In this document: in pieces, positions 1 through 37,876 of the stretch
How the letters are laid out: the number at the start of each line of letters is the position of its first letter
Numbering within the stretch: position 1 is the stretch's first letter
IMG/VR virus record: IMGVR_UViG_3300037842_000651
Span: 1-37,876 of that record
Source: a virus
Reading direction: 5' to 3' (one strand)
Length of the DNA stretch: 37,876 nucleotides
Translations under genes and position numbers: made by a program
The notes under the pieces: model-generated
What the model was told of the DNA's origin: nothing
The model's input: only the letters and a program-made list of their open reading frames with translations
Databases searched by the model: none

Positions 1-169
1 GTTTGTATTATCATTTCGTCAGCTCCTTCCGCGTCAAAGGTAGTAAATTCAAATTCTTTAGTTTTTAAGAACTCCCTCATAAAGTTGATATAACGCTTCG
101 GGGTTTGTTTTAGGCCCTCGCGGTCGGTATCTTCATTTAAAGCTTTTAAAACTTGTTTAAAATGCCATT
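1..169. repeat. Terminal direct repeat, left copy (circular closure)
   Basis: These 169 bases match 37708-37876 except at two positions: G at 127 here is A at 37834, and A at 141 here is G at 37848. The repeat lies inside folE and joining the ends restores that gene, so this is most simply the overlap of a circular or circularly permuted genome. The mismatches suggest two strain variants in the assembled population. One is synonymous; the other changes FolE residue 23 (Thr here, Ile in the right copy). Confidence 0.95.
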
Positions 170-194
170 CAGCACTATTTATAAGATATTCCAT
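1..194 (-). CDS. folE: GTP cyclohydrolase I, N-terminal part (rest at window end)
   Basis: This is the first 64 codons of the GTP cyclohydrolase I gene whose remainder is at 37356-37707. The ATG at 194-192 lies inside the 3' end of queE (16 bp overlap), and the frame stays open to base 1. The N-terminal stretch contains the family sequence LKQTPKRYINF. Joined across the circle the protein is 181 residues, a normal length for bacterial type I enzymes. Starting further in, at the Met of MREF, would remove this conserved helix, so the start at 194 is preferred. It is incomplete here only because the window cuts the circle. Confidence 0.9.
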   Translation of the reverse strand, partial: MEYLINSAEWHFKQVLKALNEDTDREGLKQTPKRYINFMREFLKTKEFEFTTFDAEGADEMIIQ

Positions 195-781
195 AACTTG
201 TGGTCTTGTACGCTTAAACTCCATTTTGGATTCGTTAAACATAAGTTAATACAATGGTTCATGTTTTCTTTATTAATTTCGTACCCGTCTGAATGCGGAC
301 TAAGATAATACTTTTTAGCTTTTATTAATGGGCTGGGTATATCTTGCCCCTGGTGTCTTACGTATCTTAATTCGTCAACTCCCTGGGGAAAGTTCTTTTT
401 AACAACGTGTTCGGCTACCTTTGGTGAAACGCTTATAAAGTCAATGTTTTCTATCATTGGTTGAAGTCCACTGGTTTCAATAGTTTGATAATATCCTTTT
501 TTCTTAAAAAACTTAGTCATATCTGAATTTAACTGGTCTAAAGGTTCGCCCCCCGTCCAGGTTATTTCCTTACACCCTTTCGCGTTATTAATAATCCATT
601 TTTCTATTTCTTTTAAAGACATTTCCTTTCCGCTTTCAAATTCAGTGTCGCATTTAATCCCCAGGGCGAAACATGCATTCTTTGTTTTGCAGCCCGAAGT
701 TCTTATGAAAATAGTAGGAACGCCCGTTCTTAGCCCTTCGCCTTGTAAGGAGTAAAATATTTCGCTAATTTTTAGGTTCAT
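179..781 (-). CDS. queE: 7-carboxy-7-deazaguanine synthase (radical SAM)
   Basis: QueE rearranges 6-carboxy-tetrahydropterin (CPH4) to 7-carboxy-7-deazaguanine using S-adenosylmethionine and a 4Fe-4S cluster. Support: the N-terminal SEIFYSLQGEG substrate motif (residues 6-16), the Cys region ending in CDTE (44-47), and the TWTGGEPLDQ glycine-rich SAM motif. The 200-residue length is normal. The Cys spacing is unusual: C31, C37 and C44 (C-X5-C-X6-C), rather than CX3CX2C or CX14CX2C; the DNA at 640-705 confirms the reading. It overlaps queD by 17 bp upstream and folE by 16 bp downstream, so the three pathway enzymes are probably translationally coupled. The family call is firm; activity with this Cys pattern is inferred. 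Confidence 0.93.
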   Translation of the reverse strand: MNLKISEIFYSLQGEGLRTGVPTIFIRTSGCKTKNACFALGIKCDTEFESGKEMSLKEIEKWIINNAKGCKEITWTGGEPLDQLNSDMTKFFKKKGYYQTIETSGLQPMIENIDFISVSPKVAEHVVKKNFPQGVDELRYVRHQGQDIPSPLIKAKKYYLSPHSDGYEINKENMNHCINLCLTNPKWSLSVQDHKLWNIL

Positions 782-1169
782 ATATAATAGTTGAGGATTT
801 TGTTTCTGCTAATTCTATTTTTTTAATTGGAAGGTTTGTTTCGTTTTTAATCCTGGTAAAAAGCCAAATCGCAATATTTTCTAAACTTGTTTCAAATGGT
901 AGTTTTAAAATAGGTTCGTTCGCTAACTCTAAAACTTCAACTAAGGGGTCGCCCTCATATATTAAAAACCAATGACAATGACTTTTGATAATTGGTTCAG
1001 TTAATTTATCTATGTCTGAAAATAAACAACTTATCCCCCCTTCATTAATTTCATTAAAACTAAAGAAACATTTTACGTTATAAGTGTGTCCATGTATTCT
1101 TCCGCATTTTTCGCCCCCAGCCTTGTTCCTATGGGCCGCGTAAAAGTGATATAATTTTTCTATTATCAT
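765..1169 (-). CDS. queD: 6-carboxy-5,6,7,8-tetrahydropterin synthase
   Basis: QueD turns dihydroneopterin triphosphate (the FolE product) into CPH4, the QueE substrate. The 134-residue protein has the zinc ligands His13, His26 and His28 (IHGHTY), the catalytic Cys22 (EKCGRIHGH), the ETSLENIA helix matching the family PTAENLA motif, and a C-terminal AET glutamate. It overlaps the transporter gene upstream by 4 bp (ATGA) and queE downstream by 17 bp. With the family residues intact, this is the active QueD of the window, in contrast to the Cys-less paralogue at 3129-3464. Confidence 0.92.
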   Translation of the reverse strand: MIIEKLYHFYAAHRNKAGGEKCGRIHGHTYNVKCFFSFNEINEGGISCLFSDIDKLTEPIIKSHCHWFLIYEGDPLVEVLELANEPILKLPFETSLENIAIWLFTRIKNETNLPIKKIELAETKSSTIIYEPKN

Positions 1170-1666
1170 TTTTTATATAATTTCATTTTCTCAAAGATTA
1201 TCCAGTACCAAAATAAGCCCCCTATAATTTTCAAAGCAAATTGACTAATCGTAATATTAAAGTCTATAACACCAAAAGCAATGATTTGAAAAATTACGCT
1301 ATCAATTAGAATTCCCACTGCATCGGAGCCGTTTACTTTTACAAAGAAAGACTTTTTTATAAATATTTGATAAAAAATACCAGCTAAAAGTTGAGCCGAA
1401 GCAAAAGCAATCATGCTTCCCAGGGCTATATTTATTGAATTTTGGTTTATTAAAAACGTTATAAGTGAAGCCGTAAAGACCAGGGCCCCCAGTTTTAAAA
1501 TTAATTCTTTGCCCTTCCATTGTTCGTGAAACATACACCTCATCACAAAGTCAAAAGGGATTAAAAAAATAGCCGTAATTATTAACCCCTTTGAGCCTAG
1601 CCATAAGACAAGGAAATTGGATAATATAAAGGCTCCCAGGTATAAACTAATTTTGACTCCCAGCAT
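1166..1666 (-). CDS. VUT/YhhQ-family membrane transporter, queuosine-precursor type
   Basis: This 166-residue, very hydrophobic protein has about five or six predicted membrane segments. It resembles phage members of the VUT family (PF02592, which includes E. coli YhhQ, an importer of preQ0 and preQ1). Family-like stretches are the polar FDFVMRCMFHEQWKGK loop near residue 40 and the NGSDAVGILIDSVIF segment. It overlaps dpdA by 20 bp and queD by 4 bp, so it is part of the deazaguanine operon. It would sit in the host inner membrane and bring in a deazapurine precursor; the substrate is inferred. An importer beside a de novo pathway looks redundant. It is slightly shorter than cellular homologues. 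Confidence 0.82.
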   Translation of the reverse strand: MLGVKISLYLGAFILSNFLVLWLGSKGLIITAIFLIPFDFVMRCMFHEQWKGKELILKLGALVFTASLITFLINQNSINIALGSMIAFASAQLLAGIFYQIFIKKSFFVKVNGSDAVGILIDSVIFQIIAFGVIDFNITISQFALKIIGGLFWYWIIFEKMKLYKK

Positions 1667-2528
1667 GAATTCGGTATTTATCTAATTCTGATTTAATGTT
1701 TAATATAAAGCCGTTCGCGGTTGCTTCCGAAATGTATTGCCTTAATAATTCGTAATCTTTTTTCGTTACAATTTTTTGAACTTCCTCGCTTTTCATTGTA
1801 CTGATTTTTCTCCCGTCTATATATCCATATCTCACCCCCGAAGTATATGAACTACTGTCGCAGCTGGAACAAAATTTTAATGAAGATAATAAGTTTTTTT
1901 CCGTAAACCCTAGTAAGTGAATATCTATTTTTGGTTTTTTGTTTTTAATATAATTAGCCAGTTGAATAAGATAGCCCTTTTTTTTTGTTAACCTTAATTC
2001 AGGAACGCTAATCGCTATATAATCAGAGTACTCAATTAACCTATCAAGCCCTTTTTGTTTGTCCTCTAAATGAAAAACGTTTATCATTCTGTTCGGCAAA
2101 GCTTCGGCCATTTTCATTCTATACTCCCAGGCACTATCAATTCCTAGTATTTTCTGAGTGTCCATTTCAACCACTGAACTTCCTTCGCCGTATTTTTTAG
2201 TAAACTCTATTAAGTTTTCACAATACCTATCTAAAAATTTCTTATCTTTATTGCCTTTTTGAGAACCGAACATTAAAGTAAAAAGGCCCGAATCTTGAAT
2301 GGTGTGCCTACTGTTTTGAATTACGAATTGAGGGATTTCATGTATTTTGTTTTTAAACTCGCAAGGAATTATCGGAGCTTTTATCTTATCAAACATCATT
2401 CTTTCTATAAAGGGATAGGCCGTATATAGACTGTATCTGCCGCCGACCGCCCTTACGGCGTGGAACTGGTGTACTTGTTCAGTCGCCGCAAAATGAACCT
2501 TTATATTGGTTTGATTATCTACTATCAT
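1647..2528 (-). CDS. dpdA: DpdA-type DNA guanine transglycosylase
   Basis: DpdA enzymes are tRNA-guanine-transglycosylase relatives that swap guanine in DNA for a 7-deazaguanine base. The 293-residue protein shows the TGT-like active-site DSG (Asp79, in QDSGLFTLM), a second acidic motif EMD (Asp123), an HLLGFT strand (204-209) and the C-terminal CDSSSYTSG motif (Asp224). It lacks the four-ligand zinc site typical of bacterial tRNA TGT, as expected of DpdA. It overlaps the methyltransferase-like gene (14 bp) and the transporter gene (20 bp). The DpdA subfamily, and hence sparse versus complete guanine replacement, cannot be assigned without alignment. Confidence 0.88.
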   Translation of the reverse strand: MIVDNQTNIKVHFAATEQVHQFHAVRAVGGRYSLYTAYPFIERMMFDKIKAPIIPCEFKNKIHEIPQFVIQNSRHTIQDSGLFTLMFGSQKGNKDKKFLDRYCENLIEFTKKYGEGSSVVEMDTQKILGIDSAWEYRMKMAEALPNRMINVFHLEDKQKGLDRLIEYSDYIAISVPELRLTKKKGYLIQLANYIKNKKPKIDIHLLGFTEKNLLSSLKFCSSCDSSSYTSGVRYGYIDGRKISTMKSEEVQKIVTKKDYELLRQYISEATANGFILNIKSELDKYRIHAGSQN

Positions 2529-3132
2529 TTTTTTTTAGCTCAAAAGCGTAATAACTAACGATGTTTTTATATCTTATTTTTATTAAGTTGCAAACCTTAA
2601 ATCCGTTATCTTTCGCGCAATCTTTAATGTATTGTTCGGGCATCGTGTAGGATAATTGATAATTTAATTGCATCTTTTTTTCTCCTCCTTTATATTTTAC
2701 CGTTTGTTCTTTTACAAATGTTTTTCGCGCGAAACTCATTATTCCAAAAGTGATAAAAAAAGTGCAATCCCCTTGCATACTTTTACACCAGTGCGAAAAG
2801 GTTTGTAGAACTTCTAATTTGTGATGGTCTAAATCAATCACGTTATAGTTGAGCTTTTTTCCTATTGGATATACATTTGCATCGGCTTTTTTTATGCTTT
2901 TATCTATTGGCTCTATATCGAGTTTTTCGTGTTTAGAAAGTTTGTAATTATTGTAAATCCTTTCACTCATTTCGCCGTAACCGTAAAAGGGTTCAATTAA
3001 TGAAAAGGGTTGTTTTATTTTTGATAAGAACTTGTTTCTTAGTTGTATTTTTAGGCCCAAACAATTCGCATGGTCGCGCGTCATTTTGTCTTTTTGATAC
3101 CTCCCTTTATTTGTTACGCCTTTAAAACTCAT
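2515..3132 (-). CDS. Putative class I SAM methyltransferase-like protein in the deazaguanine cassette
   Basis: I do not recognise a named family for this 205-residue protein. It has the order of a Rossmann methyltransferase: a glycine-containing loop after a hydrophobic strand (LIEPFYGYGEMSERIY, 45-60), an acidic strand end (IEPIDKS, Asp77), an acidic VIDLDHHK stretch (98-105), a later TFFITFG strand (124-130) and a C-terminal strand pair. The VIDLD segment recalls RNA base methyltransferases. It begins in an ATGA overlap with the QueD-like gene and overlaps dpdA by 14 bp. It could modify the inserted deazaguanine or its precursor; that is inference from fold-like motifs and position. Confidence 0.55.
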   Translation of the reverse strand: MSFKGVTNKGRYQKDKMTRDHANCLGLKIQLRNKFLSKIKQPFSLIEPFYGYGEMSERIYNNYKLSKHEKLDIEPIDKSIKKADANVYPIGKKLNYNVIDLDHHKLEVLQTFSHWCKSMQGDCTFFITFGIMSFARKTFVKEQTVKYKGGEKKMQLNYQLSYTMPEQYIKDCAKDNGFKVCNLIKIRYKNIVSYYAFELKKNDSR

Positions 3133-3464
3133 ATTTCAACCCTGGCCCCTCCCGTTAATTCTTCCCAAACTTCACACCAAATAAGGCCGTCAGATTTGCC
3201 GAATTCAATAATTTCTTTGGCTATCATTTCACAACTCATGTTCTTAAATTCACAAGGAGTGCCGTAACGTTTAATTAATTCGCTTTTAACCTGGTCGCGA
3301 CAAATAAATATTTCCTTTTCTCTATTTAAGTCTTTTACTTTGTAGCCGCATTTTATGGTGAACGTGTGCCTATGGTTTAACGAAAGGAATTTAACTTTTT
3401 CGGGGGCTTTTGGGTAGTTGTGAAACCCCTCTATTTCTAGTTGAATTATAACCGTTGTTTTCAT
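3129..3464 (-). CDS. QueD/PTPS-fold paralogue lacking the catalytic cysteine
   Basis: The 111-residue protein resembles the 6-pyruvoyl-tetrahydropterin synthase/QueD fold: an N-terminal strand ending in GFHNYP, an HRHTF pair matching the HGHTY zinc motif, an SCEMIAKEII helix like PTAENLA, and a C-terminal VWEELTGGARVEI strand. The residue four before the HRH motif, where QueD has its catalytic Cys, is Leu, so CPH4 synthesis is unlikely. I use the start at 3464, which makes an ATGA overlap with the ParB-like gene, although an in-frame Met exists at 3488. Similar short proteins occur in other phages. It may act on CDG, for example as a decarboxylase, but that is untested. Confidence 0.6.
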   Translation of the reverse strand: MKTTVIIQLEIEGFHNYPKAPEKVKFLSLNHRHTFTIKCGYKVKDLNREKEIFICRDQVKSELIKRYGTPCEFKNMSCEMIAKEIIEFGKSDGLIWCEVWEELTGGARVEI

Positions 3465-4012
3465 GTGTCTAGCCCTAGTAATTTCCAAACAATTTGTTCT
3501 TTACTTCCATTAATTGAATTTAGCTTGTCGTTTACTAACTCAAAATCATCGGCAGAATATTCCAATATAATTTTCGTTTTGTTTTCCGTTTCTTCGTTAT
3601 TGCTTTCCTCAAAAAAAGCCCCTAAATCTATGTCGGCAATTACTCCAATTTCATAATCCTCAAAACCCCATTCAATAAGGTCGTTGGCCTTAAAATGTTC
3701 TTCCAATATAGTCATATCAAATTGACCAGTGTTTTTGTTTAGCCTAACGTTAAGTTCTTTTTCTTTTGCCAGGCTTAAACAAACTTCAACCGTTGCAATT
3801 GTTTCGTTTCCCATAGATTCCCAAACTTTCATTCGCTGGTGTCCTCCGACTAAAACGTTTTTTCTTTTTGGGTGTGTGTTTACTATTATAGGGTCAACCA
3901 AACCGAACTTCGCTAGTGAAGCGGTTAAATCCTCTTTTTGTTTATTTGTCAACTCCCTGGGGTTGTATTCGGCTGGAATTAGCTCTTTTATTTTTCTGTT
4001 TTTAACCTCCAT
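3461..4012 (-). CDS. ParB/Srx-like N-terminal domain protein
   Basis: The 183-residue protein has a ParB N-terminal-like domain: the IPAEYNPREL entry motif, GLVDPIIVN strand and GGHQRMKVWESMG box (about residues 10-85). Then come a LNVRLNKNTGQFD segment and an acidic linker with a short C-terminal domain. The same module commonly sits at the N-terminus of phage DNA methylases or stands alone beside modification genes. Here no methylase domain follows. It is the first gene of the tightly overlapping cassette and shares an ATGA overlap with the QueD-like gene. A role in guiding modification to DNA is possible but inferred; cellular deazaguanine systems also contain a ParB-like protein, DpdB. 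Confidence 0.7.
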   Translation of the reverse strand: MEVKNRKIKELIPAEYNPRELTNKQKEDLTASLAKFGLVDPIIVNTHPKRKNVLVGGHQRMKVWESMGNETIATVEVCLSLAKEKELNVRLNKNTGQFDMTILEEHFKANDLIEWGFEDYEIGVIADIDLGAFFEESNNEETENKTKIILEYSADDFELVNDKLNSINGSKEQIVWKLLGLDT

Positions 4013-37019: not shown

Positions 37020-37356
37020 CCCATTTAATAATCGGAATATCTGTGGTAAGGTTTATATCTTGTTCAATTTTTTCAATATAGCCGCGACTTTTGCCCTTTG
37101 TTTTTAAAAAAAATATAGTTGCGGCGGTTGAATTTTCTTGTATCTGTTTGTGAAGTTGGCTCTCAACAAAATCCAAGGTAACATTTTCAATCTCTTTTAC
37201 TTCTTTAGCAAAGTCTTTATCCTCTTTTAAGTATCTGTAAAAGGTTGTTCGGTCAATGCCTACAATTTTACACGCGGTCGTTATTATTCCCAGCGACTTT
37301 TCCAACGCTTCAATTAAAGCCTTTTTAGTGTGTTGTATTTTGTTGCTTTTTGCCAT
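36994..37356 (-). CDS. terS: Terminase small subunit
   Basis: The 120-residue protein has an N-terminal helix-turn-helix (ALEKSLGIITTACKIVGIDRTTFYRYLKED) for DNA recognition and a helical oligomerisation region (VTLDFVESQLHKQIQENSTAATIFFLKTKG), the pattern of phBC6A51-like small terminases. Its ATG overlaps the folE stop (TAATG), so packaging is translationally linked to the modification genes. Confidence 0.85.
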   Translation of the reverse strand: MAKSNKIQHTKKALIEALEKSLGIITTACKIVGIDRTTFYRYLKEDKDFAKEVKEIENVTLDFVESQLHKQIQENSTAATIFFLKTKGKSRGYIEKIEQDINLTTDIPIIKWVEQAAEGE

Positions 37357-37876
37357 TACTTAATCAAGCTTAAAAATTCGTTTCTAGCGTTTAAATCATT
37401 TTTAAAAATTCCTATCATTTTGCTGGTAGTCGTCCAAGTATCATGTTTTTTTACGCCCCTCATGCACATACAAAGGTGTTGAGCCTTCAAAGTGACCGCA
37501 ACCCCTAAAGGGTTTAATTCCTCCATTAATCTTTCGGCTATTTGTGTCGTCACTCTTTCCTGGTTTTGAAGTTTATTAGCATATAAATCAACGCACCTGG
37601 CTAACTTACTTAACCCAACTATTTTATCACTGGGAATATACGCAACATTCGCCACTCCAAAAAACGGGGCTATATGATGTTCACATAAAGAGTAAAAAGG
37701 AATGTTTGTTTGTATTATCATTTCGTCAGCTCCTTCCGCGTCAAAGGTAGTAAATTCAAATTCTTTAGTTTTTAAGAACTCCCTCATAAAGTTGATATAA
37801 CGCTTCGGGGTTTGTTTTAGGCCCTCGCGGTCGATATCTTCATTTAAGGCTTTTAAAACTTGTTTAAAATGCCATT
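37356..37876 (-). CDS. folE: GTP cyclohydrolase I (C-terminal and central part; start across circle junction)
   Basis: FolE converts GTP to dihydroneopterin triphosphate, the first step of 7-deazaguanine synthesis. In full-length numbering the zinc ligands are Cys73 and His76 (FYSLCEHHIAPF) and Cys144 (HLCMCMRGVKK); QERVTTQIAE is the conserved active-site helix. The frame is open to the window end and continues to the ATG at position 194 of the window start, giving 181 residues. The right repeat copy has Ile23 where the left has Thr. The C-terminal codon overlaps terS by 1 bp. Host FolE exists for folate, so this copy probably boosts flux. Confidence 0.95.
   Translation of the reverse strand, partial: WHFKQVLKALNEDIDREGLKQTPKRYINFMREFLKTKEFEFTTFDAEGADEMIIQTNIPFYSLCEHHIAPFFGVANVAYIPSDKIVGLSKLARCVDLYANKLQNQERVTTQIAERLMEELNPLGVAVTLKAQHLCMCMRGVKKHDTWTTTSKMIGIFKNDLNARNEFLSLIK
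37708..37876. repeat. Terminal direct repeat, right copy (circular closure)
   Basis: Copy of bases 1-169 with mismatches at 37834 and 37848. Removing one copy gives a circle of 37,707 bp with an uninterrupted folE. Confidence 0.95.

What the first reader, a model, noticed from the sequence alone, without database searches (positions are those of the whole stretch)
1..4012. Deazaguanine DNA-modification cassette without QueC
FolE, QueD, QueE and a DpdA-type transglycosylase are all encoded in one overlapping run (continuing at 37356-37876), so the phage can make 7-carboxy-7-deazaguanine (CDG) and insert a 7-deazaguanine in DNA. QueC, which makes preQ0 from CDG, is absent. Established knowledge: phage DNA with dPreQ0, dPreQ1, dADG, dCDG and dDG has been reported. 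Inference: this phage may carry dCDG, dDG or a new derivative made by the accessory genes 2515-3464.
Basis: partly seen in the sequence, partly recalled or inferred. Interest (0 to 1): 0.8.

Follow-up and report, generated by a model that had tools for sequence, protein, structure and literature searches.

The report
Phage 7-deazaguanine DNA-modification cassette lacking QueC
This bacterial virus carries a compact set of genes for swapping guanine in its own DNA for a 7-deazaguanine base, and the usual last enzyme, QueC, is replaced by a small QueD-like protein found in many unrelated phages that probably trims the base instead, which would give these phages a predictable and chemically testable DNA base.

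Summary
FolE (spanning the join of a circular contig), QueE, QueD and a DpdA-type transglycosylase overlap in one operon, and no QueC was found. (1) 1166-1666 encodes a VUT/QPTR-type queuosine-precursor transporter. (2) The small accessory ORF 3129-3464 ("p119") is a diverged QueD/T-fold paralog: confident AF2 model, E. coli QueD as best PDB match, invariant His triad, Glu anchor and a Cys-Glu pair, catalytic Cys lost. Relatives of this DpdA give a natural experiment. Among 53 non-redundant loci with queD, queE and adequate upstream sequence, 49 have p119 without queC, 3 have queC without p119, 1 truncated locus has neither, and none has both. QueC and p119 swapped about four times on the DpdA tree. 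Ten unrelated phage lineages with p119 and QueE also lack a convincing QueC. Hence p119 most likely consumes CDG, the QueC substrate; the simplest chemistry is decarboxylation to 7-deazaguanine, which DpdA would then insert (dDG). A CDG decarboxylase named DpdL has been predicted in phages (Cui 2023, recalled, text not available); p119 may be that family. Product and chemistry are inferred. The 205-aa ORF 2515-3132 remains unidentified.

The parts
37356..37876 (-). folE, 3' part (GTP cyclohydrolase I); the gene crosses the circular join and its 5' part is 1-242
   Evidence: PF01227 6e-64, TIGR00063 above cut-off; 169-bp end overlap; joined ORF without stop
1..242 (-). folE, 5' part
179..781 (-). 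queE, CDG synthase, radical SAM, with a CX5CX6C cluster loop shared by 32 loci
   Evidence: phrog_2076 1.5e-26, TIGR04508 4e-31, below cut-off, loop spacing
765..1169 (-). queD, 6-carboxytetrahydropterin synthase; Cys22 and HGH kept, the usual DH pair reads CH
   Evidence: PF01242 2e-19, TIGR03367 4e-14 below cut-off, alignment A4
1166..1666 (-).
   Evidence: PF02592 1.3e-8 above cut-off; phrog_4899 5e-25; TIGR00697 queuosine precursor transporter 3e-6, below cut-off; conserved in position in relatives
1647..2528 (-). dpdA-type DNA guanine transglycosylase, divergent 293-aa subfamily, D79 and D224 invariant
   Evidence: phrog_887 1.8e-19 and all 6 members of A2; 80/80 conservation
2515..3132 (-). 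205-aa ORF of unknown identity, found only in this window
   Evidence: no match in Pfam, PHROGs, NCBIfam, PADLOC, PDB, phages, plasmids, IMG/VR, 295 genomes; AF2 pLDDT 32
3129..3464 (-). p119: T-fold QueD paralog (111 aa from the conserved ATG), mutually exclusive with QueC; proposed CDG-consuming enzyme (DpdL-like decarboxylase)
   Evidence: AF2 pLDDT 95; Foldseek E. coli QueD 2e-7; hhalign to QueD 5e-5; exclusivity
3461..4012 (-). ParB-N / orphan DNA-methyltransferase-N-like protein, conserved directly upstream of p119/dpdA in relatives
   Evidence: PF02195 1.8e-6, phrog_498 5e-28, synteny

Best explanation
A phage DNA hypermodification operon. [quoted passage not shown] p119, a T-fold enzyme descended from QueD and probably zinc-dependent, then acts on CDG in place of QueC, most likely removing the carboxylate to give 7-deazaguanine (DG). 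DpdA exchanges guanine in the phage DNA for that base, so the DNA would carry dDG and escape host restriction. Shown by computation: the genes, the operon, the absence of QueC, the predicted fold of p119, and the p119/QueC exclusivity. Inferred: CDG as p119's substrate, decarboxylation, DG as the inserted base, and restriction evasion.
For: Gene identities and invariant active sites. No QueC in the record. p119 is a T-fold QueD paralog with H15/H31/H33, C78-E79 and E101 invariant in 90+ homologs. Non-redundant loci with queD+queE: p119 only 49, queC only 3, both 0, neither 1 (a locus cut at the contig edge); Fisher p=1.7e-4 without tree correction. QueC sits in the same operon where p119 is lost (L072-L074, L114). 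Four changes on the DpdA tree. p119 is encoded in or near 7-deazaguanine gene clusters of 10 unrelated phage lineages that have QueE and no QueC above the TIGR00364 cut-off, one having a weak partial match elsewhere. In MAG G007, a prophage with dpdA+VUT+queC has no QueD around it and no QueE by TIGR04508, which suggests that an imported CDG-like base feeds this step.
Against: No chemistry has been tested. Roos, L087, L098, L099, L102 and L115 have p119 without queD/queE, so there CDG must be imported or come from the host, or p119 does something else; the host MAG of L115 has no QueD or QueC and only weak QueE hits. The four p119/queC switches are too few for a significant sign test. Mycobacterium phage Bipper lacks QueC, and its one unknown cassette gene is not p119, so QueC loss does not require p119. 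The unidentified 205-aa ORF could alter the final base.
Confidence: 0.55

Rival explanations
1. p119 does not change CDG (it is, for example, a DpdA partner, chaperone or carrier), and DpdA inserts CDG itself, so the DNA holds dCDG.
For: p119 is next to dpdA in nearly all loci and persists in some phages without queD/queE (Roos, L087, L098, L099, L102, L115); Bipper shows that a cassette without QueC and without a recognisable p119 exists.
Against: p119 keeps an invariant putative metal/base-binding active site, occurs in clusters whose transglycosylase candidates do not match this DpdA family, and is absent exactly where QueC is present in loci with full cassettes.
Confidence: 0.18
2. The host supplies QueC, so the phage ends with dPreQ0 and p119 is a side activity.
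For: Some hosts have a QueC of their own (Veillonella montpellierensis genome G004, Prevotella G005).
Against: It does not explain the mutual exclusion of p119 and phage queC, nor p119 in a host genome with no QueC hit above background (G010).
Confidence: 0.1
3. p119 converts CDG or another 7-deazaguanine into a product other than DG, possibly decorated further by neighbours (205-aa ORF here; glycosyltransferase-like genes beside p119 in BUCT-ZZ01 and Phosso).
For: Glycosyltransferase-like genes follow p119 in L004 and L006; the 205-aa ORF lies between p119 and dpdA here; p119 in import-only phages could act on imported bases.
Against: Most p119 cassettes have no such extra gene; no cofactor-binding motif is seen in the 111-aa protein; decarboxylation is the simplest cofactor-free step (inference).
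Confidence: 0.15

Closest known systems
Phage FolE-QueD-QueE-QueC-DpdA cassettes (dPreQ0 type: CAjan, Rosebush; Hutinet 2019, PMC6884629)
   Same: Same pathway to CDG and a DpdA transglycosylase
   Different: QueC replaced by p119; divergent short DpdA; embedded transporter; different product predicted
Mycobacterium phage Bipper (KU728633)
   Same: dpdA, queD, queE, folE directly upstream of terminase, no queC
   Different: No p119 homolog recognised in its cassette and a different DpdA; Bipper is the better candidate for plain dCDG
DpdL, predicted CDG decarboxylase, and the dDG/dCDG phages of Cui et al. 2023 (10.1093/nar/gkad657; known here from its abstract as recalled, text not held)
   Same: Proposed reaction CDG to DG
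   Different: Whether p119 is the DpdL family could not be checked; the p119/QueC exchange was found here
QueD / 6-pyruvoyl-tetrahydropterin synthase (PDB 4ntk)
   Same: T-fold, HxH motif, Glu anchor
   Different: Catalytic Cys and Asp-His lost; new invariant Cys-Glu; no hit to the QueD HMMs of Pfam and NCBIfam
QPTR/YhhQ transporters (PMC11130926)
   Same: VUT_1 family, queuosine precursor transport
   Different: Short 166-aa phage type encoded beside de novo synthesis; substrate unknown

Membership tests
Phage 7-deazaguanine DNA-modification cassette | FolE, QueD and QueE encoded | tested here: met
Phage 7-deazaguanine DNA-modification cassette | QueC encoded (dPreQ0/dG+ types) | tested here: not met
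   PF06508 absent from the record
Phage 7-deazaguanine DNA-modification cassette | 7-deazaguanine present in virion DNA | not testable with these tools
   needs LC-MS
DpdA transglycosylase | Homology to phage DpdA/TGT-like families | tested here: met
   phrog_887 1.8e-19, all 6 members of A2; no Pfam or PDB sequence match
DpdA transglycosylase | Both catalytic Asp residues | tested here: met
   D79 and D224 invariant in 80/80; Bipper DpdA aligns at D224; equivalence to the TGT residues is inferred from motif, not from a structure
DpdA transglycosylase | Assignment to a published subfamily (DpdA1-4) | not tested
   reference sequences of the subfamilies were not aligned
QueD (functional CPH4 synthase), for p119 | T-fold with HxH zinc motif | tested here: met
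   zinc itself not tested
QueD (functional CPH4 synthase), for p119 | Catalytic Cys before HGH and Asp-His pair | tested here: not met
   no Cys before HRH and no Asp-His pair conserved
DpdL CDG decarboxylase, for p119 | Sequence family named in Cui 2023 | not tested
   paper not held
DpdL CDG decarboxylase, for p119 | Occurs in cassettes that make CDG but lack QueC | tested here: met
   exceptions without queD/queE exist
QPTR/VUT transporter | PF02592 above cut-off | tested here: met
   35.7 bits against 27.2

The most novel reading that the evidence does not exclude
p119 is an unnamed QueD-derived T-fold enzyme that forms the branch point opposite QueC at CDG in many phage lineages, and part of the phage VUT transporters import CDG itself, a base not mentioned as a substrate in the QPTR paper searched here (PMC11130926): import-only phages with p119 or QueC mostly share one transporter clade, while phages with neither use a distinct clade.
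Probability: 0.3. Interest if true: 0.75.

Novelty: new variant of a known kind. Interest (0 to 1): 0.6.

Why it matters
It gives a gene-level rule for predicting the DNA base of a phage: QueC gives preQ0-type bases, p119 gives another CDG-derived base, most likely DG. It assigns a likely pathway role to a conserved hypothetical protein found in isolated phages (phiST, Paride, PA5oct), so the prediction can be tested directly. If some VUT proteins import CDG, they would be a new kind of salvage transporter.

Tried and rejected
Bipper gp4, the unknown gene in a QueC-less cassette, was tested as a p119 homolog and rejected. AF2 of the 205-aa ORF from a single sequence gave pLDDT 32, so no fold search was made with it; a methyltransferase-like look by eye ('LIEPFYGYGE') is untested. 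No relative of it was found in viral contigs, phages, plasmids or 295 genomes. Profile searches of the PDB by sequence with p119 and DpdA gave nothing useful. Cui 2023 and the 2024 MMBR review are not held. A weak QueC-like match in Vibrio phage D479 covers only the C-terminal part of the model; it lies about 100 kb from that phage's p119 and passes the Pfam cut-off but not that of TIGR00364, so it was not counted as QueC. A PRTase domain at the N-terminus of FolE in some relatives, seen by eye, has no Pfam hit.

Full report
Observation. The window is a circular or terminally redundant phage contig: its ends overlap by 169 bp with two mismatches, so folE, split between 1-242 and 37356-37876, is one intact gene. 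On the minus strand the order is ParB-like, p119, a 205-aa ORF, dpdA, a VUT transporter, queD, queE, folE, then the terminase genes. Successive genes overlap by 4 to 20 nt from the ParB-like gene to queE. Family searches confirm FolE, QueE, QueD and DpdA. QueC (PF06508) is absent from the record although the same search rings in 12 of 14 control genomes. The large terminase is closest to those of Riemerella phages (47%), which suggests a Bacteroidota host.

The ORF at 1166-1666 passes the Pfam cut-off for Vut_1 and weakly matches the NCBIfam queuosine precursor transporter. The ORF at 3129-3464 has no family name beyond phrog_17812, of unknown function. Its alignment with 38 relatives (A3) gave an AF2 model with mean pLDDT 95 and the strand-strand-helix-helix-strand-strand order of the T-fold. 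The best PDB matches are E. coli QueD (Foldseek 2e-7, TM about 0.7); in a library of viral models the matches include annotated phage QueD proteins. The profile aligns over 102 columns with the cassette's own QueD (hhalign 5e-5): HRH lies on HGH, SCE on TxEN, E101 on the QueD Glu. H15, H31, R32, H33, R48, E51, S77, C78, E79 and E101 are invariant in the homologs, while the QueD catalytic Cys and Asp-His are not kept. It is thus a QueD paralog with a remodelled active site.

Natural experiment. The DpdA alignment found 80 loci in IMG/VR and 13 in bacterial genomes, and a further scan with one relative added more. The operon ParB-p119-dpdA-(VUT)-queD-queE-folE is conserved. Where p119 is missing from full cassettes with upstream sequence, a QueC is found in the operon (L072, L073, L074, L114); L072's passes the TIGR00364 cut-off. 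After clustering DpdA at 90% identity, loci with queD and queE and at least 700 nt upstream count 49 with p119 only, 3 with queC only, 0 with both, and 1 with neither (L065, which starts at the contig edge); Fisher p=1.7e-4. This ignores relatedness. On the DpdA tree the state changes 4 times, and in no independent pair do the two traits go together, though four pairs cannot reach significance. In GenBank phages p119 occurs in 25 records. Ten lineages inspected, from Cellulophaga, Chryseobacterium, Synechococcus, Vibrio (two), Sinorhizobium, Pseudomonas, Rhizobium, Xanthomonas and Aeromonas phages, have QueE and no QueC above the TIGR00364 cut-off; Vibrio phage D479 has a weak partial match about 100 kb away. 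For comparison, 299 phage records match QueC.

Interpretation. QueC's substrate is CDG (established; PMC13329287). A protein that replaces QueC in cassettes that make CDG most simply uses CDG. A 111-aa T-fold protein without a recognisable nucleotide-binding motif is unlikely to do QueC's ATP-dependent amidation; decarboxylation to DG is the simplest alternative. DpdA would then insert DG. These steps are inferred. I recall from the abstract of Cui et al. 2023 that dDG and dCDG exist in phages and that a CDG decarboxylase, DpdL, was predicted; the paper is not in the library, so whether p119 is DpdL is open.

Complications. Some phages have p119, dpdA and VUT but no queD/queE/folE at the locus (Roos, L087, L098, L099, L102, L115; for Roos the whole record lacks FolE and QueE). 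The host MAG of L115 shows no QueD or QueC and only weak QueE hits. A prophage with dpdA, VUT and queC (L119) lies in a MAG without QueD and without a QueE hit to TIGR04508, though a phrog_2076 match of 77 bits exists there; since QueC needs CDG, import of CDG is the simplest account. In line with this, the VUT proteins of most phages with neither p119 nor QueC form a separate clade (L087 and L121 form a further pair). MAG incompleteness limits this argument. Bipper lacks QueC, and its unknown cassette gene is not p119; it is a better candidate for plain dCDG, as Hutinet 2019 already noted as a possibility (PMC6884629).

Unresolved. The 205-aa ORF has no detectable relative and could not be modelled. 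It may alter the final base. DpdA belongs to a divergent short group that matches phrog_887 but no Pfam family; it was not placed among the published DpdA subfamilies.

Verdict. The finding is real; its reading is partly right. Most likely the phage carries dDG rather than dCDG. Interest 0.6; a new variant of a known kind.

Noticed in passing
window 1-169 and 37708-37876: End repeat of 169 bp with two mismatches: circular or terminally redundant contig, so gene calls at the ends are split.
   Followed up: yes
window 179-781: QueE cluster-binding Cys spacing is CX5CX6C, shared by 32 of the loci, against CX3CX2C in 14; queE types differ between close cassettes.
   Followed up: partly
window 765-1169: QueD reads CH where QueD normally has the catalytic DH pair; also in L010 and L079.
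   Followed up: no
L008, L009, L010 folE: FolE carries an N-terminal extension of about 100 aa that looks like a phosphoribosyltransferase by eye (DDLIDSG), without Pfam hit; it might recycle guanine released by DpdA. BUCT-ZZ01 has a separate annotated guanine PRTase in its cassette.
   Followed up: partly
L004 7376-8542, L006 7372-8463: Glycosyltransferase-like genes directly after p119 in Synechococcus phage BUCT-ZZ01 and Sinorhizobium phage Phosso: possible sugar-decorated deazaguanine.
   Followed up: no
L124 9001-9378: P. aeruginosa jumbo phages (Paride, PA5oct, MIJ3) encode p119; in Paride it lies near QueE.
   Followed up: partly
L087 3035-5795: Cassette with p119, dpdA, a deaminase, a short QueF-like ORF (by eye) and a different VUT, without queD/queE/folE.
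   Followed up: partly
window 3461-4012: ParB-N/methyltransferase-N-like protein without a methyltransferase domain sits directly upstream of p119/dpdA in most relatives; a role in the modification is possible.
   Followed up: no
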